Source of the DNA: an uncultured Bacilli bacterium
GTDB taxonomy: Bacteria > Bacillota_I > Bacilli_A > RF39 > UBA660
Length of the DNA stretch: 14,805 nucleotides
Reading direction: 5' to 3'
Assembly: GCA_947589725.1 (NCBI GenBank)
Contig: CANQCQ010000008.1
Span: 1 to 14,805, forward strand
Below, in pieces: positions 632 through 14,805 of this stretch. The notes beneath the pieces are model-generated. The model ran no database searches and was not told where the DNA came from. It worked only from the letters and a program-made list of their open reading frames with translations. Both the position numbers and the translations under genes were made by a program. Numbering within the stretch: position 1 is the stretch's first letter; each line of letters opens with the position of its first letter.

Positions 632-1570
632 ATGGCAAAAATTAGTATAATAATTCCAGTTTATAATGCAGAAAAATATCTAAATAAATGTATTGATTCA
701 TGCATTAATCAAACATTTAAAGATTTAGAAATTATAATGGTAGATGATGGATCTATAGATAATTCTTCATCTATCATAAAAAATTATAGTGATAAAAGAA
801 TAAAGTATTATAAAAACACAAATCATGGAATTGGCTATACTAGAAATTTTGGTATTGAAAAAGCAAGTTCAGAATTTATTATGTTTTTAGATTCAGACGA
901 CTATTTAGAATTAGAGGCTTGTTCAAAACTATATTCATATGCAATATCAAATAATTTAGATTTAGTAATATGTGATTTTTATCGTATTATAGATAATAAA
1001 GTTCTAGAAGAAAAGTTGCCTACTTTCAATAATACAACTTTAAAAGAAACACCTTCATTACTATCAGATATAAATTTATCTCCATGGAATAAGTTTTATA
1101 AAAAATCTCTAATAATTGATAATAAAATAAAGTTTATAGAAAACTTAAAATATGAAGATGCTCCCTTTGTTTCATTTGCCTTAGATAAAGCAAAGAATAT
1201 AGGAAAAATTGATGAATGTCTATACGACTACTGTGTTAGAGAAAGTAGTGAGACAACTATTAGAGATGAAAGATGTTTTGATATATTTAAAATAATTGAT
1301 ATAATGAAAAATTATTTTAATAAGAAAGACTATGTAAAAAACTCTTTTAATCAATTTGTTGTTAGAACTATAACAAATTATACAATTCAACAAAGAACAC
1401 AAATTGATAAAAAAGTAGGTCAAAAGTTTATTGATGAAGCATTCAAATACTTAAAAGAAAATGTTAAAGATTATAAAAACAGTAAGTATTATAAATCTAG
1501 AGGATTTATTAGAAAGAATATTGAAAGAAGTAAATTATTAACTAAATTATATTGTTTATTATATAGATAA
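632..1570 (+). CDS. Glycosyltransferase family 2 (GT-A fold), complete
   Basis: A complete 312-residue inverting-type GT2 enzyme that would transfer a sugar from a nucleotide donor to a growing cell-surface glycan on the cytoplasmic side. The N-terminus has the standard SIIIPVYNAEKYL opening (residues 5-17), the nucleotide-binding VDDGS at 37-41, and the metal-binding DSDD at 87-90 after the FIMFL strand. The acceptor-side region shows WNKFYKK at 152-158 and the YED motif at 174-176 that contains the probable catalytic base. No membrane span is evident. Its length is normal for EpsJ/CpsI-like enzymes. The start is supported by GGAGG at 623-627, four bases before ATG. It follows another GT2 gene with a similar C-terminal pattern, so the two probably act in succession. 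Sugar specificity cannot be read from the sequence. Confidence 0.93.
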   Translation: MAKISIIIPVYNAEKYLNKCIDSCINQTFKDLEIIMVDDGSIDNSSSIIKNYSDKRIKYYKNTNHGIGYTRNFGIEKASSEFIMFLDSDDYLELEACSKLYSYAISNNLDLVICDFYRIIDNKVLEEKLPTFNNTTLKETPSLLSDINLSPWNKFYKKSLIIDNKIKFIENLKYEDAPFVSFALDKAKNIGKIDECLYDYCVRESSETTIRDERCFDIFKIIDIMKNYFNKKDYVKNSFNQFVVRTITNYTIQQRTQIDKKVGQKFIDEAFKYLKENVKDYKNSKYYKSRGFIRKNIERSKLLTKLYCLLYR

Positions 1571-1595
1571 TTTATGTTAGAATAGAAATGTTTAT

Positions 1596-1604
1596 AAAGG
1601 AGAG
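1596..1604 (+). promoter_or_regulatory. Ribosome binding site deciding the start at 1612
   Basis: AAAGGAGAG lies at a normal distance before ATG 1612. An in-frame ATG at 1588 would place this strong site inside the coding region and has no Shine-Dalgarno sequence of its own. The start at 1612 (575 residues) is therefore preferred over 1588 (583 residues). Confidence 0.75.
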
Positions 1605-1611
1605 TTTTATT

Positions 1612-3339
1612 ATGAAGTTAAAAACATCTAGTAATAATTTATTTATAACTAACTCTATGAAATTATTCTTTATGTTATGCTTATATTTTTTAAGTGTACT
1701 AGTATTATTTTCAATAACTGAAATTTTAAATATCAACAATGTATTAGGTTTAATAGAAATAATTTCAATAATTATTCCAATTATGTATATTTATAAAAAT
1801 ACAAAAATTGATAAAAAACTTTATACAATAATATCTATATTTTTATTGTTAGTAGTAGTATTACCTTTTTTATCTACTAAAACATTTGATACAACTGTAG
1901 ATGGAAATACTTATCATAAAAGCTCAATAGCTTTTATAAAAAATGGTTGGAATCCAGTTTATCAAGGAGCAAAAGAATTTCAAAAAGAAAATAGTGATGT
2001 TATTAAGATAGAAGATGACTCAATCCTAGATGTATGGATGGATCATTATCCTAAAGCTACTTGGATAGTAGCAGCTGTTATGTATAATTTAACTGGAAAT
2101 ATTGAATCTGGAAAATGCATTACTATAATCCTTTCTATAATGTTATTAATTATCACTTATAATGTTTTAAGAAAAATACTTGATAAAAAATGGGCAGTAA
2201 TTATTTCTCTTTTATTTACTTTAAATCCAATTGTATTAGGACAATTTTACTCATACTATTTAGATGGTATTATGGGAATATGCTTTTTGATGCAATTAAT
2301 TTTATTATTTCATGTTAATCCTATGGAAAAACAAAATATAATGATTTGGACATCTCTTGCCGCAATCATTAGTATCTTTTCTAATCTTAAGTTTACAGGA
2401 TTAATGTGCTCTGGTGTTATTGCCGCAATATTTTACTTTTATTGGATAATAAAATTTCATAAAGAAAAAGACTTCTTTAAAAAATTCAGAAAAATTACTT
2501 ATTACTTTATAGGTGTTTATGTAATAGCTATATGTTTAGTAGGATCTAATTCATATATTAAAAATACTATTGATCATCATAATCCTTTATATCCATTATT
2601 AGGAAAAGGTAAAATAGATATAGTTACTACTATGCAACCTAAAGAGTATGGAAAAATGAACTCAGTAGAAAAATTTACTTATTCATTATTTTCTAAAACA
2701 GAAAACACAATTTATGAAATGAATAAACCAGATTTAAAACTACCTTTTCAAGTATATAAAAGTGAAATTCAAGAATTGTATAGTCCAGATACAAGAATTG
2801 GAGGATTTGGACCGTTATTTACTTTATGTTTAATAATTTCAATTATTATTTTCATACCATCAATAATAATACTATATAAAAATGAAAAAAATAATGTAAA
2901 ATACGTTGTAATTTCCTTGCTTTCAGTAGTAGTTACAATGATTATGGTAGGAGAAGTATGGTGGGCTAGATATGTTCCTCAATTTTACTTTGTTGTTGTG
3001 GGAACCTTATTCTTACTAGTTTATATTTCTAAATATATAAACAATAAATTTATTAATTATATAAAATATTTATTTATGGTACCAATTCTAATTAATATAT
3101 TTTTCTTTTTATACGTAGTTTTAAATACTACTTTATCATTTAGAACTTTAAATAATGATCTAATAGAATTAAAAAATACTAAAAACTTGAAATTAGAAAT
3201 TGGAAGAGAATTATATGGGTATGAGTATTTATTAAAAGATAGAAAAATTAATTACAAAAAAGTTTACAATCTAAAAGAAGATGAAGTTATTTATAAATTT
3301 TCATGGAAATTTAAAGTAAAAAGGAGTAGCAGTAAATGA
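1612..3339 (+). CDS. GT-C-like multi-spanning membrane glycosyltransferase candidate
   Basis: A 575-residue integral membrane protein with about a dozen hydrophobic spans, beginning within the first 40 residues. After the third or so span it has an acidic loop, DTTVDGNTYH (93-102), then WNPVY (113-117) and WMDHYPK (142-148). Acidic residues in the first outer loop are the usual site of the catalytic Asp in GT-C enzymes, which use polyprenyl-phosphate sugars and act outside the membrane. These motifs recur in the same order in the C-terminal part of the protein encoded at 5502-7796, and the two are similar along their whole length, including the soluble tail with NNDLIELKN near the end. No Pfam family is named with confidence, and membrane transport remains an alternative. 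The start is set by the ribosome binding site at 1596-1604. The stop overlaps the next gene's start as ATGA (3336-3339), which suggests translational coupling to the acyltransferase. Confidence 0.7.
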   Translation: MKLKTSSNNLFITNSMKLFFMLCLYFLSVLVLFSITEILNINNVLGLIEIISIIIPIMYIYKNTKIDKKLYTIISIFLLLVVVLPFLSTKTFDTTVDGNTYHKSSIAFIKNGWNPVYQGAKEFQKENSDVIKIEDDSILDVWMDHYPKATWIVAAVMYNLTGNIESGKCITIILSIMLLIITYNVLRKILDKKWAVIISLLFTLNPIVLGQFYSYYLDGIMGICFLMQLILLFHVNPMEKQNIMIWTSLAAIISIFSNLKFTGLMCSGVIAAIFYFYWIIKFHKEKDFFKKFRKITYYFIGVYVIAICLVGSNSYIKNTIDHHNPLYPLLGKGKIDIVTTMQPKEYGKMNSVEKFTYSLFSKTENTIYEMNKPDLKLPFQVYKSEIQELYSPDTRIGGFGPLFTLCLIISIIIFIPSIIILYKNEKNNVKYVVISLLSVVVTMIMVGEVWWARYVPQFYFVVVGTLFLLVYISKYINNKFINYIKYLFMVPILINIFFFLYVVLNTTLSFRTLNNDLIELKNTKNLKLEIGRELYGYEYLLKDRKINYKKVYNLKEDEVIYKFSWKFKVKRSSSK

Positions 3340-4382
3340 AGCAAAGAGATTATAATATAGATTTTTTAAGAGGAGTTGCAACACTTTGGATAATTGTAGT
3401 TCATACTGCTTTTTGGTCTGGTGAATTATACTTACCTAAATGGTTCAGTAATCTTACATTATTATTAGATGTCCCTGCTTTTATGTACATTGCTGGTTTA
3501 TCTTTTAGTTATAGTAATTCCATTACCAAAACTTTAAAGAATATAATAAATCAATGGAAAAAATGGTGCTATTTCTTAATATTTTATGTAATCTTAACTT
3601 TTATCTTTTATAGATATGATTTTCATTTTAAAGATATAATATCTTGGTTGTTTTACACATTTCCAAAAAGTTATGGCTTTTTAGTAGTTGGCGGAAGTAT
3701 TTGGTTTATCTCAATGTATATAGGAGTATCAATCTTTAGTTCTCTTATAATTTGTATAAATAATTATTTTGAAAAAAATAAAGATAAAAATATTCAAAAT
3801 TTAATATATATTTTATTATTTTTATTATTAATATTTGGCCATAATACTACAGGAGATGCTTCCTTATTGATAAATAAAGATATTTCGTTTTATTCTTTAA
3901 TCTTTATTTTTGGTTATTTAACTAGAAATTATAGTATTAATTTAAAACAAGCTATTATATATCTTACTTCTTGTTTAATTATATTAATTGGTATTTTAAT
4001 GGTTAATGATTATAATATATCTTATTTCCAACAATTAAAATTTCCACCATCAATTGCATATTTATTCATATCTTCTTTTTCAATAATAATATTTTGGTAT
4101 TTAAAGGATAAACTAAAGATTAAGAAAAATAATATTCTAAATTATGTTGGTAAAAATGCAATATTTTATTATTTTGCTCAAGGAATGTCATCAACATTAA
4201 TATATAGAGCAGTAGTAGCTTTATTACCTACAGTTAATCCATATATATTATTTGTTTTAATGGTTATTTTAAATATTGCTCTTGCAACAGCACTTGTTGT
4301 AATTTTAGAAAAATTATATAATTTAGTTTGTAAAATTAAGTTAGATAAGTTTAAAAAGATACTTTTACCAACACAAAAGTAG
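3336..4382 (+). CDS. Membrane acyltransferase, acyltransferase-3 (AT3) family
   Basis: A 348-residue protein of about ten membrane spans matching the acyltransferase-3 family (PF01757; OafA, NolL and the membrane half of OatA). These pass an acyl group, usually acetyl, from the cytoplasm towards a sugar at the outer face. The N-terminal signature is present: RDYNIDFLRG (4-13) with Asp9 and Arg12, followed by IIVVHTAFW with the invariant His23. The VPAFMYIAGLSF stretch at about 46-57 corresponds to the family's 'vP.Fff.SG' second span. There is no fused SGNH domain, but the next gene encodes a membrane-anchored one, so the two may form a split OatA-like system. The start is supported by AAGGAG upstream inside the preceding gene, which it overlaps by four bases. 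The acyl group and the sugar target are not identifiable. Confidence 0.9.
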   Translation: MKQRDYNIDFLRGVATLWIIVVHTAFWSGELYLPKWFSNLTLLLDVPAFMYIAGLSFSYSNSITKTLKNIINQWKKWCYFLIFYVILTFIFYRYDFHFKDIISWLFYTFPKSYGFLVVGGSIWFISMYIGVSIFSSLIICINNYFEKNKDKNIQNLIYILLFLLLIFGHNTTGDASLLINKDISFYSLIFIFGYLTRNYSINLKQAIIYLTSCLIILIGILMVNDYNISYFQQLKFPPSIAYLFISSFSIIIFWYLKDKLKIKKNNILNYVGKNAIFYYFAQGMSSTLIYRAVVALLPTVNPYILFVLMVILNIALATALVVILEKLYNLVCKIKLDKFKKILLPTQK

Positions 4383-4422: not shown

Positions 4423-5481
4423 ATGTTATTAATATCAATAGATGTAGAGTACAATTATAATCTAATAGAAAAAATTCGAAAAGCTAAAGATAAAGTACAA
4501 ACAAATATCTTTATTTCTGATGATTTAAATTACTCACATGACTATAGTAATTATGATTATATAATTACCGAATATGATATAAAAAAAATAGACTATTTTT
4601 CAGCTTTGGGAAAAAATGTCATAATTTGTTGTTTTAATGATGAAACTATTGAATCTAGTTACAGAAAAAAAGAGAATATAACAATATGTTATACAGAAGA
4701 TGACGTAGTTAAAAAAGTATGTGAAAAACCATTAAAGAAAGATTCTTATATTACTTGGAGTTATTTAAAAAAAGCTCTACCAGCTCTATTAATTATATTA
4801 ATTGCAGTATTTGGAGTCTTTACTTTAAGTAAAACAGTATTTAAACCTGAACCAAAAGAAGAAAAAAAACAACAGAAAGTAGTAGAAAAGAAATCTACGG
4901 AAATAGATTTTGGCAAAGAAAATTATGTTTTTTTAGGAGACTCAATTACTGATTTTTATGACTTGGAAACATATTATGGAGATTTACCTGTCGTAAATAG
5001 TGGAATTAGTGGTAATCAATATAAAGATTTATTAAATAATTTAGAAACAAGAGTATATGCGTATAATCCAACTAAAATATTTATCTTAATAGGTACTAAT
5101 GATATAGCTTTTACTGACATAACAGATGAAGAATTAGTAGACAAAATTATAGAAATATGTGATGAAATTCATAAAGTTAAAGAAAAAGCAGAAATTTATG
5201 TTGAATCAATTTATCCTGTAAATAAAACTACTAATAATGATATTGTTGATCTTGATATGGTTACAGTTAGAGAAAATGATAGAATTAAAGAAATAAATAA
5301 ACTACTTAAAGAAAAAGTAGAAGAAAATAAATACAACTATATAAATATGTATGACTTATTAAAAGATGAAGATGATAATTTAAAATTAGATTATACAGTT
5401 GATGGTCTTCATATATCTGATCAAGGATATAAAGTTATTACAAAAAAAATAAAAGAAATTATATATAATAAAGAAAACTAA
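4423..5481 (+). CDS. Membrane-anchored SGNH/GDSL hydrolase or O-acyltransferase partner
   Basis: A 352-residue protein in three parts. Residues 1-~112 form an unrecognised soluble domain of alternating strands and helices with cysteines at 69, 70, 89 and 100. Residues ~118-136 (ALPALLIILIAVFGVF region) are a single membrane span, followed by a Lys/Glu-rich linker to ~165. Residues ~167-350 are an SGNH domain with all blocks visible: GDSIT at 172-176 (nucleophile Ser174), NSGISG at 192-197, GTND at 224-227, and DGLH at 327-330 (Asp327, His330). The expected topology puts the SGNH domain outside. It follows the acyltransferase-3 gene by 40 bases, so it likely completes acyl transfer to the surface glycan, as the SGNH domain of OatA does. 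A de-O-acetylating esterase is the alternative. GAGGTGA at 4411-4417 supports the start. Confidence 0.88.
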   Translation: MLLISIDVEYNYNLIEKIRKAKDKVQTNIFISDDLNYSHDYSNYDYIITEYDIKKIDYFSALGKNVIICCFNDETIESSYRKKENITICYTEDDVVKKVCEKPLKKDSYITWSYLKKALPALLIILIAVFGVFTLSKTVFKPEPKEEKKQQKVVEKKSTEIDFGKENYVFLGDSITDFYDLETYYGDLPVVNSGISGNQYKDLLNNLETRVYAYNPTKIFILIGTNDIAFTDITDEELVDKIIEICDEIHKVKEKAEIYVESIYPVNKTTNNDIVDLDMVTVRENDRIKEINKLLKEKVEENKYNYINMYDLLKDEDDNLKLDYTVDGLHISDQGYKVITKKIKEIIYNKEN

Positions 5482-5501
5482 GTAGTAAATGAGGAAAGAA
5501 T

Positions 5502-7796
5502 ATGAGAAATGCATATGACTTTGATGGAACAATTTATGATGGAGACTCTTCTATAGATTTTTATTTTTATTGTTTAAAGAAAAAACCATTTATTATTTTC
5601 TTTTTACCAATTCAAATATATGGGATAATTTTATATTGTTTAAAAATAAAAAATAAAGATTACATGAAAGAGAAAATATTTTCTTTTTTAAGAGAAATAG
5701 ATGATGTTGATAAATATGTAAATGATTTTTGGGAAAAGAACTATAATAAAATTAAATCATGGTATTTTAATCAAAAGAAAACTACTGACATAATTATTTC
5801 TGCATCACCTGAATTTTTATTAAAAGGCTTAGAAAAAAAGTTAAATATTGAAAAAGTAATTGCCACAAAAGTAAATAAAAAAACAGGAAAATTTGAATCA
5901 AAGAATTGTCATGATTATGAAAAAATTAAAAGATATGAAAAACTATATGGTAAAAAGGAAATTAATGCATTTTATTCAGACTCAGTTAAAGCTGATAGAG
6001 CAATGTTAGAGTATTCTAATAAAGCTTATTTAGTTGATAAAGACGAAGTTAAAGAAATTGATATAAAAAATTATAAAGAAGAAAATAATTTTGCTTTACT
6101 AGTTTCTATAAATATTTTATTATTTATATCAATACTTGCATTTATACCACAAATCTTATACTTAATAAATATTAGTATTAATAAATTTTATTTACCACTA
6201 ACATTATTATTTTTAATAATTTATAATTACTTTGCTTCAAAAAAATCCATAAAGAAAACAATTAAAATAACATTGACTTCATTTATAATAATATTTGCAT
6301 CAATTGCCTTTTGTGCCTTAATTACAGATATATCTATTGATGGAAATAGTTATCGAAAAATAATGAGTGGATTATTAAGAGAAGGTTGGAATCCAGTTTA
6401 TGAGTCAGCGCAAAGTTTTAATAAGATGGCTCATATTTTACCAGATAAATTGTCATCATTTGGTAATAAAACACAATGGTTTTGGATGGATGTTTATCCA
6501 AAAGGTTTAGCAACTCTTGGTTCATGCATTTCAATTATATTTAATTTAATAGAAACTGGTAAATGTTATACGATACTTACAATGTTTGTTTTATTTCTTT
6601 TATATTATATTGTATTAAAAAAGTATTTTAATAAAGCAACTTGCATATTATTAAGTTTAATCATAGCACTAAATCCAGTATCAATATGTCAATTAAAAAC
6701 CTTCTATGTCGATGCAGCACTAAGTAATATAATTTTAATTGCCGTAGCTTTATCAATACTATATTTTAGAGATAATAAAAATATTTACATATATTTAATA
6801 TGTTTATGTATAATGCACAGTTTTTCAATAAAATTTAATGGAATATTATACATAGGTATCACTTGTATTATAATGTGGTTAATCCAACTTATAATAGATA
6901 AGAAACAAAATAATTACAACAAAAGCAAAAAAATCTTTATATTATATTCAATAAGCATTTTATTATCAATAGTTATAAATTATTCTCCATACATAACTAA
7001 TATAACAAGATATAATGAGATACTTCCAGGAATTACTGGAGAATCTACTAAGGCAATAGGAAATGTTACAATATCAACAAAAAAATTAAATACAATTGAA
7101 ATATTTTATGCAAATATATTTTCTAAAGTAGGAGATTATTGGGAAGAAGAAAACTTACCATTAAAGGTACCATTTACTTTTTCAAAAGAAGAAGTGGTAA
7201 ACTATGAAATTGCAGCAGGACAGTTTGGAACATTTGGAATGTTTTTTAGTGGTATTTATATAGTTATTACTATACTTGGACTTTCAATGATTATTAAATA
7301 TAGAAAACAAATTTTTAAAGATAAAGAAGGCCTTATAACATTTATCTTTGTAGTATCAATTTATATTCAATCTGTTTTATCACCAATCGGATATGGTGGA
7401 CTTAGATATGTTGGACATTTCTATATTATTGTTCCATATGTTCTTGCTTTATCTATGTACTTTATGAAGAATACAAATAACATTGCAAGAAAGAGTTTAT
7501 TAGTAATAAATTCATTTTTAGTAATACTTATAATGGCAAATTTGATACCATATATTAGAATTTATATTACAAATATTTCTTGCTTTAGAAGAGATAGAAA
7601 TGATTTAATTTATATAAGTAATAATTATAAAACAGAAATGAAAGTAGCTTTAAGAATAGAAACATCACATGGAATGCTACTCAACTTAAGAGATTATAAC
7701 ATTAATTATGGTGATTATGATTTTGTAACTCAAAAAGAATTAAAAGGTAAAGTTTTTAATACTTGTGCGTATCAAATTTATTACGCACATAAATAG
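5502..7796 (+). CDS. HAD-IB phosphatase fused to a GT-C-like membrane domain
   Basis: A 764-residue two-part protein. Residues 1-~190 are a complete haloacid-dehalogenase phosphatase of the SerB-like IB class: DFDGT at 6-10 (nucleophile Asp6, acid Asp8), SAS at 100-102 (motif II Ser), lysines near 141-143 (motif III) and YSDSVKAD at 158-165 (motif IV). A hydrophobic cap insert at ~29-48 may touch the membrane. Residues ~196-764 hold about a dozen spans and are paralogous to the protein encoded at 1612-3339: DISIDGNSYR (276-285), WNPVY (296-300), WMDVYPK (328-334) and a matching RNDLI segment near the end. The reading frame is continuous across the junction with no second start needed. The next gene, nine bases on, encodes a phosphoribosyl-polyprenyl synthase, so the HAD part may remove the 5-phosphate from its product and the membrane part may use the resulting lipid sugar. 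Motifs are seen; the substrates are inferred. Confidence 0.82.
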   Translation: MRNAYDFDGTIYDGDSSIDFYFYCLKKKPFIIFFLPIQIYGIILYCLKIKNKDYMKEKIFSFLREIDDVDKYVNDFWEKNYNKIKSWYFNQKKTTDIIISASPEFLLKGLEKKLNIEKVIATKVNKKTGKFESKNCHDYEKIKRYEKLYGKKEINAFYSDSVKADRAMLEYSNKAYLVDKDEVKEIDIKNYKEENNFALLVSINILLFISILAFIPQILYLINISINKFYLPLTLLFLIIYNYFASKKSIKKTIKITLTSFIIIFASIAFCALITDISIDGNSYRKIMSGLLREGWNPVYESAQSFNKMAHILPDKLSSFGNKTQWFWMDVYPKGLATLGSCISIIFNLIETGKCYTILTMFVLFLLYYIVLKKYFNKATCILLSLIIALNPVSICQLKTFYVDAALSNIILIAVALSILYFRDNKNIYIYLICLCIMHSFSIKFNGILYIGITCIIMWLIQLIIDKKQNNYNKSKKIFILYSISILLSIVINYSPYITNITRYNEILPGITGESTKAIGNVTISTKKLNTIEIFYANIFSKVGDYWEEENLPLKVPFTFSKEEVVNYEIAAGQFGTFGMFFSGIYIVITILGLSMIIKYRKQIFKDKEGLITFIFVVSIYIQSVLSPIGYGGLRYVGHFYIIVPYVLALSMYFMKNTNNIARKSLLVINSFLVILIMANLIPYIRIYITNISCFRRDRNDLIYISNNYKTEMKVALRIETSHGMLLNLRDYNINYGDYDFVTQKELKGKVFNTCAYQIYYAHK
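7764..7789 (+). other. Hairpin at the 3' end of the HAD fusion gene
   Basis: TGTGCGTA (7764-7771) and TACGCACA (7782-7789) form a perfect eight-base stem with a ten-base loop. The stem is rich in G and C compared with its surroundings and lies inside the last coding codons, five bases before the stop and eight before the next gene's ribosome binding site. No T-run follows, so it is not a terminator. It could influence translation of the downstream UbiA-type gene or mRNA stability. Chance is possible. Confidence 0.4.
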
Positions 7797-7805
7797 AGGT
7801 GGAAT

Positions 7806-8678
7806 ATGAAAAATTATATTAAACTTATAAGAGCAAAACATTGGTTAAAAAATGCATTAGTATTTTTACCAGTTTTCTTTAGTATTAACATTTTAAATTT
7901 AAATTATTTAGCTAAATGCTTACTGGCATTTGTTGTTTTTTGCTTTGCATCTTCTATAGTCTATGTTTTAAATGATATGAGTGATATAGAAAAAGATAGA
8001 TTACATCCAATCAAAAAAAATAGACCATTAGCAAGTGGAGCAATTAGTCTAAATCAAGCTAAAATGACTATTCTAATCTTAGGAATCTTTATGATTATTA
8101 TCATGTCATTTTTCTACAACTCTACTAAGAATATTTTTACTATTTTAATTCCTTTAATATATATCTTATTAAATATTTTATATAGTAAAGGATTAAAAAA
8201 TATTCCAATTATTGACGTAGTAATTCTTGTGAGTGGCTTTGTCTTTAGAGTTATGTATGGTGGAGTAGTTATAAATGTTGAAGTTTCTAAGTATTTATAT
8301 TTAATGATAATATTTGCTGCTTTTTATTTAGGATTTGGAAAAAGACGTAATGAAATATTAAAAAATGGTGAAAAAAGTAGAAAAGTATTAGAATATTACA
8401 ATAAAGATTTCTTAGATAAAAATATGTATGTAGCTTTTGCTTTAGCAATTGTTTCATATACTTTATGGTGTGTTGATCCTACAACAATAGCACACGTAGG
8501 AACTGAAAATTTATTTTGGACAGTACCTTTCGTTATGGTTATTTTACAACTATATAGTTTAAATATTGAAGGTAACTCACATGGAGATCCAATTGAAGTT
8601 ATACTTTCAGATAAAATATTACTTTTAACTGGAACAATTTATGGTATTATTATGATAATTATTTTATATGTATTATAA
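7806..8678 (+). CDS. UbiA-superfamily polyprenyl-phosphate phosphoribosyltransferase (DPPR synthase-like)
   Basis: A 290-residue membrane protein with about eight or nine spans. It most resembles decaprenyl-phosphate phosphoribosyltransferase (Rv3806c type), which transfers 5-phosphoribose from PRPP to polyprenyl phosphate. The first Asp-rich motif reads NDMSDIEKDRLHP (56-68) and runs into KKNRPLASG (70-78), the specific 'HP.K..RP.ASG' form of that subfamily. The second region has YSKGLKNIPIIDV (126-138), then GFVFRVMYGG (144-153) and FGKRRNEI (177-184), again the subfamily's 'gFvlRa.aG ... gKR..El' pattern. Menaquinone or ubiquinone prenyltransferases lack this combination. The start is supported by AGGTGG directly after the upstream TAG. 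In actinobacteria the product is dephosphorylated and becomes a furanose donor. Here the upstream HAD domain could do the dephosphorylation, and neighbouring GT-C-like proteins could use the donor. Confidence 0.88.
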   Translation: MKNYIKLIRAKHWLKNALVFLPVFFSINILNLNYLAKCLLAFVVFCFASSIVYVLNDMSDIEKDRLHPIKKNRPLASGAISLNQAKMTILILGIFMIIIMSFFYNSTKNIFTILIPLIYILLNILYSKGLKNIPIIDVVILVSGFVFRVMYGGVVINVEVSKYLYLMIIFAAFYLGFGKRRNEILKNGEKSRKVLEYYNKDFLDKNMYVAFALAIVSYTLWCVDPTTIAHVGTENLFWTVPFVMVILQLYSLNIEGNSHGDPIEVILSDKILLLTGTIYGIIMIIILYVL

Positions 8679-8693: not shown

Positions 8694-10187
8694 ATGAAAA
8701 AAGAAAAATCAACTAATAAAATAAGAAATTTAATTAATAGAAAAACAATTTTATTTTCATTAATATTAATAACTATTATTTTATTGATTCCCATTATTGG
8801 TGCATCGTTTTATACAAATCCATCAGCAGATGATTATACATATGGACTAAGAACTATGAATGCTCTTTCTAATGGTGGAATAATTGAATTAATAAAAGAA
8901 ATAGGAAATACTGTAAAAGACAATTATTTTAGTTGGCAAGGAACATTTAGTGCTATTGTTTTATTTTCATTAAATCCTAGTATATGGGGAACACAAATCT
9001 ATTTTTTAACAACAATTATTATATTAGTAGCATTTTTCTTTTCTATATATTATTTATTTTCAATAGTCATAAATAAAGTTTTAAAAGTAGATAAAATTAT
9101 TACTTGGATAGCAATATTAGTATTTTATCTATTATGTATAGAAACCATTCCAGATAAAACTCAAGGCCTTTACTGGTGGAATGGAGCAAGTTATTATATG
9201 TTGTTTTTCTCAATGCAATTAATTGAGATAGCTCTTTTAATTAAAAGATATGTTTTACTACATAAAACTAAATTAAATTCTACATTAGTTTGTATTTTAA
9301 CAATTATTATAAGTGGTGGTAACTTTATAACTGCACTTCAATTATTAATAATATTAGCATTTTTAAATCTTTACTTAGTAATTGTTAAAAAAGATAAAAG
9401 TGCCACATTACCATTTGCTTTAGCAATTATAGGTTTTTTAATAAGTGCATTAGCTCCTGGCAATGCAGTTAGAGCTAGTGGAGTAGTAGGTATGAATCCA
9501 ATTAAGGCAATAATAATGTCATTTATATCTTCTATTAATAAAATTATAGAATGGTCAACACCATTAAATTTAGTAATAATTACAATAATTTCATTACTTT
9601 TAATAACAAGTTATAAAAATATTAAATTTAATTTTAAATATCCTTTAGTCTTTATCTTATTTTTATATTGCATATTTTCTGCAGAATTTACACCTAGCTT
9701 GTATGCACAATCAACAATTGGTGAAGGTAGAGCTTTAAATATAATGTATATTAGTTATTTACTTTTTCTTTTAGCAACTATCTATTATTTAAATGGTAAT
9801 ATAAGATTAAAATGTTTAAAAGAAAAAATATTTACAACTAATGCCTTAACTAATACAACAAAAATATTAAAAGAAGCAATATACATCTATATAATATTCT
9901 TTGTACTTTTGATTAATATATTTACAAATAATAAACAAAATATGACTAGTTATGTCACATATAGAATACTAGCTAATGGTGAAGCTAAAACTTATTATAA
10001 TGAATATCAAGAAAGATTAAAGATCTTAAAAGATGATAAGATAAAAGATGTTGAATTTGAAAGATTTTCAGTTTACCCATATCCTATAGTATATGCAGAA
10101 TATAGTGAAGATAAATATAGTTGGCTTAATACTCCAACAGCAGATATCTATCATAAAAACTATGTTGTCCTAAAAAAAGAAAAGTAG
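8694..10187 (+). CDS. DUF6056-like multi-spanning membrane protein, candidate GT-C glycosyltransferase
   Basis: A 497-residue membrane protein with an N-terminal span at about 18-36, immediately followed by an outer-loop motif NPSADDYTYG (42-51) whose paired Asp46-Asp47 suit a GT-C catalytic site. Further conserved-looking motifs are YFSWQG (78-83), GLYWWNGASYY (158-168) and APGNAVR (254-260). This set ('DDY', 'W.G.YY', 'PGN..R') is what I recall of the DUF6056 family, found among surface-glycan genes; I could not check it. About a dozen spans follow, and the last ~75 residues form a soluble tail. The motifs differ from those of the GT-C-like pair at 1612-3339 and 5502-7796, so it is not simply a third copy. 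The start is 15 bases after the UbiA-type gene, with AGGTG at 8684-8688. A role in transferring a lipid-linked sugar is inferred from fold type and neighbours. Confidence 0.68.
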   Translation: MKKEKSTNKIRNLINRKTILFSLILITIILLIPIIGASFYTNPSADDYTYGLRTMNALSNGGIIELIKEIGNTVKDNYFSWQGTFSAIVLFSLNPSIWGTQIYFLTTIIILVAFFFSIYYLFSIVINKVLKVDKIITWIAILVFYLLCIETIPDKTQGLYWWNGASYYMLFFSMQLIEIALLIKRYVLLHKTKLNSTLVCILTIIISGGNFITALQLLIILAFLNLYLVIVKKDKSATLPFALAIIGFLISALAPGNAVRASGVVGMNPIKAIIMSFISSINKIIEWSTPLNLVIITIISLLLITSYKNIKFNFKYPLVFILFLYCIFSAEFTPSLYAQSTIGEGRALNIMYISYLLFLLATIYYLNGNIRLKCLKEKIFTTNALTNTTKILKEAIYIYIIFFVLLINIFTNNKQNMTSYVTYRILANGEAKTYYNEYQERLKILKDDKIKDVEFERFSVYPYPIVYAEYSEDKYSWLNTPTADIYHKNYVVLKKEK

Positions 10188-10196
10188 AGAGGTAAT

Positions 10197-12917
10197 ATGT
10201 TAAACAAAATTAAAGAAAAATTAGATTTAAATAAATATAGTGATAAACAAATTATAAAATTCTTATTTATATTTTCATTACTTTTTTCAATTTTAATAGG
10301 AATTTTATTATCATATAATATTGATTTTTCTGACAATTTGAATTTATTGTTTGATTCTGATACAGGAAGAGTAATAAATGATGCATCAGTCACTACATAT
10401 GATCATTATAGATTAAGTGTTCATCCATTATATGTTTTATTAGTTCAACCAATTATCTTTATATTATCAGGAATTACTATAGATAAGATGATAGCTTTAG
10501 TAATATTTAATTCAGTTATATCTTCGTTATCAATAGTAATGCTTTACAAAACATTATCTTTATTTCATAAAGACAATAACTTTAAAGTTATTGCAGTTTT
10601 AGTATATTTATTTAGTTTTTGTAATTACATTTTTACAGCGGGAATAGAATTATATAATTTAGCTTCTTTAATATTAATTACCTCATGGTACTATGCAATT
10701 AAAAAAATGAAAGAAGGTAAATTTACCAATTATTCATACATAATTTTTATAGTTTTAGGTCTATTAAATTTATCAGTAACAATTACTAATTTTATAGTTT
10801 TTCTAATAATAATGTTTATGTTATTACTTTCAAAAAAAGTTCAATTAAAAAATATTATTATAATATGTACAAGTTCTGTAGTATTAATGCTTGGACTAAG
10901 TTATTTTCAAAATCTTGTTTGGCATAATACACCTATTATTTGGGAACAAAGATTATCTAATGAAAAAATATATTCAAAAGACATTACATATGATAAAAAA
11001 ATAAAAAACGTTATAATTAATGATTATTATCATTCTATAATAGGAAACAAATCAGAAGTTAATGTAGTATATGGTGATCAATATTTTAAAGATAATTTTA
11101 AACTTGATTTCTTAGAAAAAGAAATCTTAATAAACATAATTGTTCTTACTTTGTTTTATATATTATTAATTTATTTAATAGTAAAACACTTTAAAAAGAA
11201 TATTTTAATAAACATAGCATTAGTTTTAACATTATTATTTAATACTTTATTTCACACTATATATGGTAATAATTGTTGCTTTATATATTCATTACATTTC
11301 TTATATTTAATTGTGTTTTTACTTACTATAAATTACTCTCAAGAGAAAAATATAAAAATACAAAACTTCCTTAAGTTTATACTAATAGTAATATTATTTC
11401 TTGAAATTATAATTAACAATTATTTATTTCAATCTATAATTAAAGTAGCTAGAACTATTTTAAAAAGTACTTATTTTTTAGCAACCTTTGGATTTATAAA
11501 AGCATTTATATTAGAAGTAGGTTTAATAATAATTATTTCTTTTTCAGTTTATTTATTATTTAAACAATTAAATAAATTATCTAAAGAAAAAAATAAAGAA
11601 AAAAAGATAGTAAAAATAATTACAACTATAGTTTTAATAATGTTTATTGAATGTGTATTTATAGGAATTGATACTACTAAGACATCAAACAAAATATTAT
11701 GGAAAGAATTATACCCAGAAAAATTTGAATCACATACTATTTATAAGTATCAATATATGAATACAGATTTTAAAAACCACTTCACAAAAGAAATTAAATT
11801 ACTTGATACATATACAAATGAATATAATAAATTTCTAAATGACTATGCTCATGATAATTATTATAATTTAAATGCTGTAGATTATTATTTATTTGGATTA
11901 GGTAATAGGAAAAAACTTATTTTTGTTGATAATGTTATAAAGGATTTAGAAACAAAAAATATTTTATATAAATTTGATATAAAGGAAAAGTTAATTATAC
12001 CGAATAATTATGAAGTAATCATTCAAACAAGTTCTAATGATTTTATAAAAATATATGAAGATAATAATGGTGTACACTATAATAAAAATGGAAAAGATGA
12101 AATTATAGATGGTACTGATGTAAAGATCAATTTATATGATTTTAAAAATCAAAAATATCAAAATATTAAGAAAGTACTATATGGGGAAATTTTATTTAAT
12201 ATAAAAGACAGTATTATATATCCAAATATATTAGTGTATGATTCTCCATGGTATAGAGATGCTGCTTTAGCTGCAATGGTGTTAAAGCAAACAAATAACA
12301 CAGATTTGATAAAGGATTGGGTTTCCAATATAAAAGATATTTATGATAGACAAAATAAAGGTAATAAAGAACCTGATAATTTAGGAGAACTACTTTATAT
12401 TTTATCAACACAAAAAGAGAAAAATGAATTGCTAATTAATGAAATTGAAAAAGAAGCAGAAGCTATAGCTAAATCAAATAAATTAGGTTATTATCTTCAT
12501 GGAAATATTGATTATACTGAAATGAATTTATATCCAAATCTTTGGTATAAACTAGGTATAGAAGCAGTTGGAAGAAAATTTAAATTCAATATAAATAATT
12601 TAAAAGATGATTATTCTAATTCTGCTTGGTGGAGTAATAATGATAAAAATAATAATACTGAATACACACCAGATGATAAATATCCTTATTTAACTTTTGG
12701 TAAAAGACATGCTTTAGGAAAAGGAAAAATAGTTGTCAATAGTAAAAATTATCCATTATCATGGGAACAATGTGCGTCTGAGGCAAATTACGATAATATG
12801 GAAATTATCGACAAAGGCTTTAAAGATTATAAAGTTTCTCCAACACATACTTGGACAGCATCTGAATTTCTTCTTTTCCTATTAGATGAAACTAATGACT
12901 TAAAGGAGCTATATTAA
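10197..12917 (+). CDS. Large GT-C-like membrane protein with C-terminal helical-barrel-like ectodomain
   Basis: A 906-residue protein. Residues ~20-490 contain about a dozen hydrophobic spans; after the first, the loop reads DSDTGRVINDAS (53-64) and YDHYRLSVHPLY (68-79), with acidic and HPL elements like those in GT39-type mannosyltransferases. Residues ~495-906 are soluble and probably outside the membrane. The region ~500-670 looks mixed or beta-rich. The last ~240 residues contain SPWYRDAALAAMVL (683-696), EPDNLGELLYILS (725-737), YPLSWEQCASEA (852-863) and THTWTASEFLLFL (883-895). The Trp/Asp/Glu-rich helical repeats resemble six-hairpin (alpha/alpha barrel) glycosidases, which is a pattern judgement and not a family match. 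The protein may transfer a sugar and bind or trim the glycan, or the tail may be non-catalytic. The ribosome binding site AGAGG (10188-10192) abuts the upstream stop, indicating a tight operon. Confidence 0.68.
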   Translation: MLNKIKEKLDLNKYSDKQIIKFLFIFSLLFSILIGILLSYNIDFSDNLNLLFDSDTGRVINDASVTTYDHYRLSVHPLYVLLVQPIIFILSGITIDKMIALVIFNSVISSLSIVMLYKTLSLFHKDNNFKVIAVLVYLFSFCNYIFTAGIELYNLASLILITSWYYAIKKMKEGKFTNYSYIIFIVLGLLNLSVTITNFIVFLIIMFMLLLSKKVQLKNIIIICTSSVVLMLGLSYFQNLVWHNTPIIWEQRLSNEKIYSKDITYDKKIKNVIINDYYHSIIGNKSEVNVVYGDQYFKDNFKLDFLEKEILINIIVLTLFYILLIYLIVKHFKKNILINIALVLTLLFNTLFHTIYGNNCCFIYSLHFLYLIVFLLTINYSQEKNIKIQNFLKFILIVILFLEIIINNYLFQSIIKVARTILKSTYFLATFGFIKAFILEVGLIIIISFSVYLLFKQLNKLSKEKNKEKKIVKIITTIVLIMFIECVFIGIDTTKTSNKILWKELYPEKFESHTIYKYQYMNTDFKNHFTKEIKLLDTYTNEYNKFLNDYAHDNYYNLNAVDYYLFGLGNRKKLIFVDNVIKDLETKNILYKFDIKEKLIIPNNYEVIIQTSSNDFIKIYEDNNGVHYNKNGKDEIIDGTDVKINLYDFKNQKYQNIKKVLYGEILFNIKDSIIYPNILVYDSPWYRDAALAAMVLKQTNNTDLIKDWVSNIKDIYDRQNKGNKEPDNLGELLYILSTQKEKNELLINEIEKEAEAIAKSNKLGYYLHGNIDYTEMNLYPNLWYKLGIEAVGRKFKFNINNLKDDYSNSAWWSNNDKNNNTEYTPDDKYPYLTFGKRHALGKGKIVVNSKNYPLSWEQCASEANYDNMEIIDKGFKDYKVSPTHTWTASEFLLFLLDETNDLKELY

Positions 12918-12966: not shown

Positions 12967-13938
12967 ATGATTAAAAAACCAGTTTTGTATATTGTTGTTC
13001 CATGCTATAACGAAGAAGAAGTATTGGAAGAGACAACAAGACAATTAAAGATAAAGATGGAAAATTTAATAAAACAACAAAGTATTTCAGAAGATAGTAG
13101 AGTAATGTACATTAATGATGGTTCTAAAGATAGTACTTGGGAACTTATAAAAAAGATAGATAGTAAAGAAAAATTATTTACTGGTGCTAGCTTATCAAGA
13201 AATAGAGGACATCAAAATGCTTTACTAGGTGGATTAATGACTGCCAAAAAATATGCAGATGTAGTAATTTCTATGGATGCAGATTTACAAGATGATATAA
13301 ATGCAATCGATGAAATGATTGAAAAATATAAAGAGGGTTCAAATATTGTATATGGAGTAAGAAGTGCTAGAAAAAAAGATACTTTCTTTAAACGTGTAAC
13401 TGCTGAAGGATTTTATAAATTTATGAAACTCTTAGGAGTAGATTGTGTTTACAATCATGCTGATTTTAGGTTAACTTCAAAAAGAGTCTTAGATGAATTT
13501 GAAAACTTTAAAGAAGTAAATTTATTTTTAAGAGGAATGTTTCCATTAGTAGGATTTAAAACAGATGTAGTTTATTATGAGAGAAACGAACGTTTTGCTG
13601 GAAAATCTAAATATCCATTAAAGAAAATGTTAAACTTTGCATGGGATGGAATAACTTCATTTAGTGTTAAGCCTTTAAGATTTATTTGTTCACTAGGATT
13701 TATTATTCTCTTAATAAGTTTTGCTATTATGATCTATTCGGTTGTTAGAAAAATAACTGGTAATACAGTCGATGGTTGGACGTTTCTTTCAATATCAATT
13801 TGGTTTATTGGTGGATTGCAAATGATAAGTATAGGAATCATTGGTGAATATGTTGGAAAGATGTATAGTGAAACAAAAGCACGTCCTAGATATATAATTT
13901 CAGAAAATCTAAATGAAAAAGAAAAAACTGAAAAATAA
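12967..13938 (+). CDS. Polyprenyl-phosphate hexosyltransferase, GtrB/CsbB-like (GT2, DPM1 type)
   Basis: A 323-residue enzyme that would transfer a hexose (glucose or GlcNAc in known relatives) from a nucleotide sugar to undecaprenyl phosphate at the inner face of the membrane, making a donor for GT-C enzymes. The GT-A domain opens with VVPCYNEEEVL (10-20), then NDGSKDST (50-57), LSRNRGHQNALLGG (76-89), the metal-binding DADLQDD (104-110) and DFRL (166-169). RFAGKSKYPLKK at 209-220 is the typical acceptor-side motif. Two membrane spans (about 238-260 and 272-295) and the ending GEYVGKMYSETKARPRY (293-309) are characteristic of GtrB, CsbB and YfdH. No GtrA-like flippase is in the window. It has its own promoter but sits on the same strand, 49 bases after the GT-C-like gene, and is followed by an intrinsic terminator. 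AGAGG at 12954-12958 supports the start. Confidence 0.93.
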   Translation: MIKKPVLYIVVPCYNEEEVLEETTRQLKIKMENLIKQQSISEDSRVMYINDGSKDSTWELIKKIDSKEKLFTGASLSRNRGHQNALLGGLMTAKKYADVVISMDADLQDDINAIDEMIEKYKEGSNIVYGVRSARKKDTFFKRVTAEGFYKFMKLLGVDCVYNHADFRLTSKRVLDEFENFKEVNLFLRGMFPLVGFKTDVVYYERNERFAGKSKYPLKKMLNFAWDGITSFSVKPLRFICSLGFIILLISFAIMIYSVVRKITGNTVDGWTFLSISIWFIGGLQMISIGIIGEYVGKMYSETKARPRYIISENLNEKEKTEK

Positions 13939-14096: not shown

Positions 14097-14805
14097 ATGT
14101 CAGATATTAAGTTTATTTCTCCTTTATATGATTGTACTTTTAAGATATTGTGGAAAAGTTTAGAATGCCGTAGTTGGTTTACTAAGCTGATTAAATTGAT
14201 TACTAATGTAGATTTATCTAATTATGAATTATATGATCCTGAATATAATAAAAGAAGTAATATTAAAGAATATCGTCTAGATATAGTTTTTAAAAGTAAG
14301 AGTTCTGATGATATTTTAAATATTGAGATGTATAAAGATTTTGAAATGGTAGATAGAATTAAGTCTCATGCTTATGTATTTAGAATATTATCAAATAATT
14401 ATGAATCAAATGAAGAATATAAATTAAGGAAAGCTATTCAAATTAATTTTAATGATGGAATATTTAAAGATGATCCAGATGTTGATATTATATCTTATAA
14501 GTTAAGAGATAAGCTTGGAAAATATGAATTAGATGAGATTACAATCTATGATGTATATCTTCACAATTTTAGAAATTATTGTTATAATGAAAGCGAAGAA
14601 TTATATGCAATGTTATCTCTTTTAACAGCTAATAGTTATGAAGAGATGGAGATAATTGCAAATGGTAATTTGGAGGCAAAGATTATAGTGGATAAACTAA
14701 AAGAAATAGCAAATGAAAAACGATTTGGTGTAATATACGATGCTGAAAAAGAACAACGCAAAAGAGAAAGAAGCAACTACACTTTTGGATATGATGAAGG
14801 TAGAG
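14097..14805 (+). CDS. Rpn/PDDEXK family nuclease or putative transposase, 3' end outside window
   Basis: The first 236 codons of a gene that continues past the window end. The start has GAGGTG at 14084-14089, seven bases before ATG; an overlapping ATG at 14090 stops after six codons. The N-terminus FISPLYDCTFKILW (6-19) is the usual opening of the Rpn/'PD-(D/E)XK nuclease family transposase' group (PF12784-like). The nuclease core shows RLDIVF with Asp62, then ILNIEMYKDF with Glu77 (74-82), then RIKSHAYVFRI (87-97). Most relatives read E-x-Q at the second catalytic site, while here it is E-M-Y followed by Lys80, so activity is less certain. The last visible residues, FGYDEGR, begin the Gly/Glu-rich tail common in this family. 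Such proteins are linked to recombination-promoting DNA cleavage and are often multicopy in gut Firmicutes. It lies beyond the terminator and is unlikely to belong to the glycan cluster. Confidence 0.82.
   Translation, partial: MSDIKFISPLYDCTFKILWKSLECRSWFTKLIKLITNVDLSNYELYDPEYNKRSNIKEYRLDIVFKSKSSDDILNIEMYKDFEMVDRIKSHAYVFRILSNNYESNEEYKLRKAIQINFNDGIFKDDPDVDIISYKLRDKLGKYELDEITIYDVYLHNFRNYCYNESEELYAMLSLLTANSYEEMEIIANGNLEAKIIVDKLKEIANEKRFGVIYDAEKEQRKRERSNYTFGYDEGR

What the first reader, a model, noticed from the sequence alone, without database searches (positions are those of the whole stretch)
5502..8678. HAD phosphatase–GT-C fusion beside a DPPR synthase: a possible compact polyprenyl-phosphate-ribose module
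Seen: one continuous frame carries all four HAD motifs and then a dozen-span membrane domain, and nine bases later lies a UbiA enzyme with the motifs of the Rv3806c subfamily. Known: in mycobacteria Rv3806c makes polyprenyl-phosphoryl-5-phosphoribose, a separate phosphatase removes the 5-phosphate, and GT-C enzymes use the final furanose donor. Inferred: here phosphatase and transferase are one polypeptide that could take phosphoribosyl lipid, dephosphorylate it in the cytoplasm and spend the product outside. I do not know of a characterised protein with this fusion.
Basis: partly seen in the sequence, partly recalled or inferred. Interest (0 to 1): 0.75.

Follow-up and report, generated by a model that had tools for sequence, protein, structure and literature searches.

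The report
Sugar-lipid phosphatase fused to membrane glycosyltransferase
A bacterium whose closest relatives are gut Bacilli seems to carry, in one protein, the phosphatase that finishes a ribose-lipid donor and a membrane enzyme that could use that donor outside the cell, next to the gene that starts the donor; relatives shuffle the same phosphatase onto many other proteins.

Summary
One open frame (5502-7796, 764 aa) joins an N-terminal HAD-IB phosphatase to a polytopic membrane domain, and nine bases later lies a UbiA enzyme of the Rv3806c subfamily. It is no frame error: four database relatives carry the same fusion over full length, and HAD joins this membrane family at four separate places on its tree. 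In all four other loci where such a fusion could be read in context, UbiA is next door. In a 241-genome sample, 28 of 31 genomes with this UbiA also have this HAD; 24 of 29 HAD places in them lie within 5 kb, on the same strand. The same HAD is fused to about a dozen partner groups, including GtrA flippases, other PMT/GT-C-like proteins, and a HAD-GtrA-GT-C triple fusion. Best reading: a polyprenyl-phosphate-ribofuranose pathway like the Citrobacter three-component system (Kelly 2024), with the phosphatase moved from UbiA to the transferase. Against: this HAD family also occurs without UbiA (32 of 60 HAD genomes), and some partners are not transferases.

The parts
5502..6071 (+). HAD-IB phosphatase domain (residues 1-190; Pfam match 5-170), predicted 5-phosphate phosphatase of polyprenyl-phosphoryl-phosphoribose
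6099..7796 (+). GT-C-like polytopic membrane domain (residues 200-764) with an invariant D276-x-x-x-D280-G motif in the loop after the first hydrophobic segments
7806..8678 (+). UbiA-type polyprenyl-phosphate phosphoribosyltransferase (Rv3806c subfamily); N56 D57 D60 D64 and R180/E183 keep the spacing of ORF15 N247 D248 D251 D255 and R366/E369
   Evidence: residue numbers of ORF15 from PMC11127046 section 7
5491..5498 (+). Shine-Dalgarno-like GAGGAAAG of the fusion gene
1588..3339 (+). stand-alone paralogue of the GT-C domain (583 aa; 28.9% identity, E 1e-38), weak PMT_2 match below cut-off
8694..10187 (+). DUF6056 membrane protein (497 aa); relatives of it are fused to the same HAD elsewhere (P0011, P0034, L005)
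10197..12917 (+). 906-aa membrane protein; relatives of it are fused to the same HAD elsewhere (P0010, P0025, P0028; L010, L131, L134)
4423..5481 (+). SGNH/GDSL protein; one relative is fused to the same HAD elsewhere (P0032)
3336..4382 (+). acyltransferase-3; a protein of the same Pfam family (not clustering with this one) is fused to the same HAD in P0081
12967..13938 (+). GT2 of the polyprenyl-phosphate-sugar synthase type (PgfS / ArnC-like, below cut-off), a possible second lipid-sugar donor maker
632..1570 (+). GT2 glycosyltransferase of the cluster

Best explanation
UbiA (7806-8678) transfers phosphoribose from PRPP to polyprenyl phosphate on the cytoplasmic face. The HAD domain of the fusion protein removes the 5-phosphate there, giving polyprenyl-phosphate-ribofuranose. 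A flippase (GtrA-type in relatives, not seen in this window) carries it across. The GT-C-like domain of the same polypeptide adds the ribofuranose to a surface glycan. Joining the phosphatase to the transferase keeps the finishing step of the donor beside its consumer (or, in relatives, beside its flippase). UbiA motifs and the HAD-UbiA linkage are well supported by sequence and genome evidence; the HAD substrate, flipping and the GT-C donor are inferred.
For: UbiA carries the Rv3806c motifs with the spacing of characterised members. In 241 genomes of one order, HAD (E<=1e-15) is in 60 and UbiA in 31; 28 of the 31 have both (Fisher p 9e-17, not corrected for kinship; completeness of these genomes is not told). 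Of 29 HAD places in those 28 genomes, 16 lie within 50 bases of UbiA, 8 more within 5 kb (24 of 24 on the same strand), 5 on other contigs. In 80 HAD loci plus the window, UbiA is the commonest neighbour family (36 of 81; 30 of the 36 upstream of HAD; median gap 10 bases). GT-C family: 14 of 31 UbiA genomes against 12 of 210 others (p 6e-8); 13 of the 14 lie within 2.6 kb of UbiA. HAD is fused to this GT-C family at four separate places on the GT-C tree (minimum 5 state changes over 42 rows, 11 fused); UbiA adjoins the fusion in the window, L008, L127, L129, L130. L127 reads HAD-GT-C, UbiA, GtrA in a row. A Lactococcus plasmid holds separate UbiA, HAD and GtrA genes next to a 533-aa protein of another fusion-partner group. 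HAD-GtrA fusions beside UbiA: L039, L049, L074, L076, L135, L136 (PF04138 checked in L039, L074, L076). Triple fusion HAD-GtrA-GT-C in 4 database proteins.
Against: 32 of the 60 HAD genomes have no UbiA match. HAD-GtrA genes occur behind ispF/ispD in loci without UbiA, and in the four such genomes tested no UbiA was found, so this HAD family has other uses. Some fusion partners are an SGNH protein and an acyltransferase, so fusion alone does not name the ribosyltransferase. 12 of 26 genomes with the GT-C family lack UbiA; of the 6 read, five are closest to P0088 and one to P0075 at about 50-70%. No flippase found in the window. The GT-C fold rests on weak similarity; no structure could be predicted. 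3 of 31 UbiA genomes lack this HAD; in the two read (L145, L146) none lies in the fetched stretch.
Confidence: 0.66

Rival explanations
1. The phosphatase is right but the fusion is only a membrane tether or a by-product of gene adjacency: HAD acts on the UbiA product, while the GT-C domain uses another donor, such as a polyprenyl-phosphate-hexose made by the GT2 at 12967.
For: HAD is fused to about a dozen unlike groups, with at least 39 changes among 13 partner states on a 164-row HAD tree; HADs 80-94% identical carry different partners. 12 of 30 UbiA-linked stand-alone HADs are followed within 150 bases by a gene of a fusion-partner group (one of the 12, an acyltransferase, by Pfam class only), against 1 of 29 unlinked ones, so fusion by loss of the stop between neighbours is plausible. 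The window has a GT2 of the lipid-sugar-synthase type, below cut-off, and several other membrane proteins.
Against: The GT-C family itself tracks UbiA (13 of 14 within 2.6 kb) and was fused to HAD more than once. No stand-alone HAD was seen directly 5' of this GT-C family among the 59 examined, so mere read-through of a common gene order is not evident for it.
Confidence: 0.25
2. The HAD is a lipid phosphatase of another pathway (for example a PgpC-like phosphatidylglycerophosphatase or a polyprenyl phosphatase), and its nearness to UbiA is incidental.
For: The best NCBIfam match, TIGR01490 (HAD-IB hyp1), is below cut-off; two relatives weakly match the phosphatidylglycerophosphatase C model and several the histidinol-phosphatase models, all far below cut-off. 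HAD occurs without UbiA in 32 of 60 genomes.
Against: 28 of 31 UbiA genomes carry it, 24 of 29 places within 5 kb on the same strand. The HAD of PRK08238-type HAD-UbiA fusions aligns to it over the domain by profile comparison (probability 96.6-97.4).
Confidence: 0.07
3. The fusion is an assembly or sequencing error.
For: The window's own protein stands on a single contig (P0001).
Against: Four full-length relatives with the same fusion at 53-63% identity and further ones in L008, L127, L129, L130.
Confidence: 0.01

Closest known systems
Citrobacter youngae O1/O2 three-component pentofuranose system (ORF15 PRP-UbiA, ORF14 MATE, ORF12 GT136; PMC11127046)
   Same: UbiA-type polyprenyl phosphoribose synthase, HAD-family phosphoribose phosphatase, GT-C-like transferase in a surface-glycan cluster
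   Different: There the HAD is fused to UbiA; here it is fused to the membrane transferase (in relatives also to GtrA and others). Several relatives have GtrA beside UbiA instead of a MATE protein.
Mycobacterial Rv3806c / Rv3807c / DprE1-E2 / Emb-Aft arabinan pathway
   Same: UbiA enzyme of the same subfamily (8j8j is the best solved match)
   Different: Its phosphatase Rv3807c is unrelated to HAD (PMC11127046); no DprE1/E2-like match among the nine window ORFs scanned
PRK08238 / NF006088 HAD-UbiA fusions of Alphaproteobacteria (Salipiger, Rhizobium plasmids)
   Same: HAD plus UbiA, next to GtrA and two oxidoreductases
   Different: HAD in the UbiA chain. The A3 profile of the window-type HAD does not find their HAD with HMMER; hhalign aligns the two. 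None of 27 matches in 199 genomes of the phylum of G009 (the genome of L028, Cellulosilyticum) is such a fusion.
Cytoplasmic gPRT-PRP ribofuranosyltransferases and the Hib capsule polymerase (the first from the introduction of PMC11127046; the second seen only as a search listing, PMC10299916, details recalled)
   Same: A HAD phosphatase domain fused to the enzyme that handles phosphoribose
   Different: Those transfer phosphoribose from PRPP directly to the glycan in the cytoplasm; no lipid donor, no GT-C

Membership tests
Polyprenyl-phosphate phosphoribosyltransferase (Rv3806c subfamily of UbiA) | NDxxDxxxD motif and loop-IV R..E with the spacing of characterised members | tested here: met
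   N56 D57 D60 D64, R180 and E183 invariant in 21 sequences; spacing equals ORF15 N247/D248/D251/D255, R366/E369
Polyprenyl-phosphate phosphoribosyltransferase (Rv3806c subfamily of UbiA) | Score over a curated family cut-off | tested here: met
   NF008978 209.6 vs 207; but NF008977 216.3 vs 234 and NF008976 153.1 vs 474 are below
Polyprenyl-phosphate phosphoribosyltransferase (Rv3806c subfamily of UbiA) | PRPP-dependent activity | not testable with these tools
   needs an assay
HAD superfamily, type IB | PF12710 over cut-off and four catalytic motifs | tested here: met
   41.7 vs 27 bits; motifs invariant
HAD superfamily, type IB | TIGR01490 / TIGR01488 curated cut-offs | tested here: not met
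   61.5 vs 98.3 and 31.2 vs 45 bits; the Lactococcus stand-alone relative passes TIGR01488 with 60.1
Phosphoribose phosphatase (PRP) domain of Kelly et al. | Sequence kinship with the HAD domain of HAD-UbiA fusions | tested here: inconclusive
   no HMMER match of the A3 profile to the Salipiger and Rhizobium fusions, hhalign probability 96.6-97.4 over the domain with a two-sequence profile; Citrobacter ORF15 itself was not obtained
Phosphoribose phosphatase (PRP) domain of Kelly et al. | Removal of the 5-phosphate from the lipid-linked phosphoribose | not testable with these tools
   needs an assay
GT-C glycosyltransferase | Recognisable GT-C sequence family | tested here: inconclusive
   no Pfam match for the window domain; 3 of 14 relatives match PMT_2, best E 2.5e-4, below cut-off for the window paralogue; hhalign to a PMT_2-bearing family 93.6%, E 2e-7 over 187 columns; to two other partner groups 13% and 6%
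GT-C glycosyltransferase | GT-C fold with catalytic Asp in the first outer loop | tested here: inconclusive
GT136 | Kinship with Citrobacter ORF12 | not tested
   ORF12 sequence was not obtained
Three-component pentofuranosylation system | Flippase encoded with the donor synthase and the transferase | tested here: not met
   no GtrA, MATE or SMR match among the window's ORFs scanned; the contig is cut. Met in relatives L127 and L008 and on the Lactococcus plasmid
PRK08238 HAD-UbiA fusion | HAD and UbiA in one chain | tested here: not met
   separate genes

The most novel reading that the evidence does not exclude
Low-GC gut Bacilli and relatives run a mix-and-match, extracytoplasmic pentofuranosylation system in which one phosphatase module is repeatedly re-fused to whichever protein takes the lipid-ribose next: the flippase (HAD-GtrA), the transferase (HAD-GT-C), or both in one chain (HAD-GtrA-GT-C). 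The fusion would couple donor finishing on the inside to export and use on the outside, and the partner swap would change which glycan is decorated.
Probability: 0.42. Interest if true: 0.76.

Novelty: new variant of a known kind. Interest (0 to 1): 0.6.

Why it matters
It predicts lipid-linked ribofuranose, shown as a glycosylation donor in Citrobacter and as a step of mycobacterial arabinan synthesis (PMC11127046), as a widespread surface-sugar donor in Bacillota, including a plasmid of dairy Lactococcus where it can be tested at once. The repeated fusions act as natural labels: they point to new families of candidate pentofuranosyltransferases (the 764/583 family and other partner groups) that have little or no functional annotation. 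A phosphatase, flippase and transferase in one chain would be a clean case for studying how a donor is handed across a membrane.

Tried and rejected
Sequence error joining two genes: rejected, four full-length relatives. GT-C recognition by profile against solved structures: no meaningful hit (two anti-CRISPR chains at E 0.3-0.4 are chance). HAD profile against solved structures: none. Kinship of the GT-C family with the 906-aa and P0033-type partner groups by hhalign: not supported (6% and 13%). GT-C family on plasmids: window paralogue no match, P0110 only three weak Cereibacter hits. HAD-UbiA fusion in the phylum of G009: none among 27 matches in 199 genomes. A hydrophobic cap helix as a sign of a lipid substrate: only 9 of 23 alignment rows (27 of 82 HAD ORFs, window included) reach the threshold, so dropped. 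Co-occurrence of the 906-aa family: 4 of 241 genomes only, too few. Literature on a HAD-GT-C or HAD-GtrA fusion: searches of the held open library listed none in titles and abstracts; subscription papers and preprints are not covered, and listed papers other than PMC11127046 were not opened. Window genome: not held.
Full report
WHAT IS THERE. The window is a 17-27% GC surface-glycan cluster; all ten ORFs of 90 aa or more lie on the + strand. The fusion gene (5502-7796) starts behind a Shine-Dalgarno-like site. Residues 5-170 match PF12710, with the HAD motifs. From residue about 197 on there are some ten hydrophobic segments. UbiA follows after nine bases. Its best NCBIfam matches are the decaprenyl-phosphate phosphoribosyltransferase models, one of them just over its cut-off, and its best solved relative is Rv3806c (8j8j, E 2.5e-36; E 1.2e-53 for the family profile).

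THE FUSION IS REAL AND RECURRENT. A protein search returned 115 relatives (of 7999 candidates scored). By motif and clustering, 99 carry the HAD and 16 are GT-C-family proteins without it. The 99 fall into 12 partner groups (blastp clusters at E<1e-8, so remote kinship between groups is not excluded): the window's GT-C family (16), P0026 type (31), 906-aa type with DUF6080 (16), P0033 type (12), PMT_2 type (8), GtrA-containing or related (7), YfhO (3), DUF6056 (2), and single cases with SGNH, acyltransferase-3, P0074 and P0098. On a HAD tree of 164 rows the partner state changes at least 39 times among 13 states, and fused versus alone at least 19 times. Pairs of HADs with different partners reach 94% identity (P0015 and P0093). 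On the GT-C tree HAD-fused members appear in four separate places: the window with P0002-P0005 (unfused P0006 inside), L127, L129 with L130 (and P0015, P0023), and L008; the reduced tree needs at least 5 changes (42 rows, 11 fused). Counts of changes cannot tell gain from loss, and the trees are of the quick kind.

THE HAD BELONGS WITH UbiA, BUT NOT ONLY. Of 81 HAD ORFs in them, 56 have over 3 kb on both sides; 25 of these 56 have UbiA within 200 bases and 33 within 5 kb. Of the 15 loci closest to the window (L001-L015), 13 show UbiA within 5 kb; the other two are L007 (contig ends 1.1 kb downstream) and L012, whose genome has a 73% UbiA elsewhere. A second, whole-genome test took 241 genomes of one order. 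HAD was in 60, UbiA in 31, both in 28 (Fisher p 9e-17, not corrected for kinship). Of 29 HAD places in those 28 genomes 24 lie within 5 kb of UbiA, all on the same strand, and 5 are on other contigs. Against this, 32 HAD genomes have no UbiA. In unlinked loci, mostly of Clostridia, the HAD stands behind a CNNM-family gene (L018, L019, L022, L043, L046, L055), or as HAD-GtrA behind ispF, with ispD where the contig shows it (L035, L045, L050, L070, L073, L080), so the family has at least one other role.

THE GT-C FAMILY ALSO TRACKS UbiA. In the same 241 genomes the family is in 26: 14 of 31 UbiA genomes and 12 of 210 others (p 6e-8). 13 of the 14 lie within 2.6 kb of UbiA. Six of the 12 others were read: five are closest to P0088 and one to P0075, at about 50-70% identity. 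On the tree the P0088 group holds no UbiA-linked close member, but the P0075 group also holds a copy 4.3 kb from UbiA (L004). Every fusion of HAD with this family whose surroundings could be read has UbiA beside it: window, L008, L127, L129, L130.

UNFUSED AND OTHERWISE FUSED VERSIONS. In L001 and L002, close syntenic relatives of the window, HAD is a separate gene overlapping the end of UbiA by four bases. On the Lactococcus plasmid pLLF27D the order is a 533-aa protein of the P0033 partner group (32%), UbiA, HAD, GtrA, inside an exopolysaccharide cluster that also has an oligosaccharide flippase. L127 reads HAD-GT-C, UbiA, GtrA. HAD-GtrA fusions adjoin UbiA in L039, L049, L074, L076, L135 and L136 (L049 is nearly identical to L039). 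Four proteins of about 815 aa (P0084, P0085, P0090, P0094) run HAD, GtrA, then about 490 residues similar to the PMT_2-bearing part of P0079 (25-26%, E 1.5e-11 to 1.9e-10): phosphatase, presumed flippase and presumed transferase in one chain. Their genomic context was not seen. Stand-alone, UbiA-linked HADs are followed within 150 bases by a gene of a fusion-partner group in 12 of 30 cases, unlinked ones in 1 of 29, so many fusions can be read as merged neighbours; none of those neighbours was of the window's GT-C family.

MECHANISM. Shown by sequence: the UbiA motifs and the HAD motifs. Shown by genome evidence: the tie between HAD and UbiA, and between this GT-C family and UbiA. Inferred: UbiA makes polyprenyl-P-ribose-5-phosphate; the HAD removes the 5-phosphate; a flippase turns the lipid over; the GT-C domain uses it outside. 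The chemistry follows the Citrobacter system, where the D18A phosphatase mutant gave mainly the phosphorylated lipid, with some dephosphorylated product left, and ORF12 used the lipid-ribofuranose (PMC11127046; read: outline, sections 5, 7, 9, first of two parts of 12, and found passages). Whether the sugar stays ribose is open; no epimerase-like match came up among the nine window ORFs scanned. The topology needed (HAD inside, D276/D280 loop outside) depends on counting two or three hydrophobic segments before that loop and is not settled.

WHAT IS KNOWN AND WHAT IS NEW. Known: HAD-UbiA fusion, separate phosphatases, and GT-C transfer of lipid-pentofuranose (PMC11127046). New here, as far as the searches in the held open library go: HAD fused to the GT-C rather than to UbiA, its recurrence, the wide partner exchange and the triple fusion. 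The window HAD and that of HAD-UbiA fusions are distant relatives: no HMMER match, hhalign 96.6-97.4% (a two-sequence profile). PMC10299916 was seen only as a listing with the start of its abstract.

VERDICT. It is a new variant of the three-component pentofuranosylation pathway.

Noticed in passing
L035, L045, L050, L070, L073, L080: HAD-GtrA fusion genes directly behind ispF (and ispD where visible) without a linked UbiA; the four genomes tested (of L045, L050, L070, L073) have no UbiA match at all. Another use of the same phosphatase-flippase pair, perhaps on another polyprenyl phosphate.
   Followed up: partly
P0084, P0085, P0090, P0094: Proteins of about 815 aa that run HAD, GtrA, then a PMT/GT-C-like part: phosphatase, flippase and transferase in one chain.
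   Followed up: partly
L123 11998-13715 (Lactococcus plasmid pLLF27D): Separate UbiA, HAD and GtrA genes inside a dairy exopolysaccharide cluster, a convenient test organism.
   Followed up: partly
L005 7863-12046: Two HAD fusions side by side (P0026-type partner, then DUF6056 partner) with HAD domains 86% identical, beside UbiA.
   Followed up: partly
window 10197-12917: 906-aa protein of a DUF6080-related membrane family with a long, strongly conserved C-terminal part without a Pfam match.
   Followed up: no
window 14097-14804: ORF cut by the window end, no Pfam match; the syntenic relative L001 has an ABC-transporter pair (PF00005, PF01061) at this place instead.
   Followed up: partly
L124 and L125: Salipiger and Rhizobium plasmids with HAD-UbiA, GtrA and two oxidoreductases in a row, an apparent lipid-pentofuranose epimerisation set.
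   Followed up: no
L018, L019, L022, L043, L046, L055: Stand-alone HAD of this family just behind a CNNM/CBS/CorC-HlyC gene, in one clade of the HAD tree, no UbiA in the locus: function unknown.
   Followed up: no
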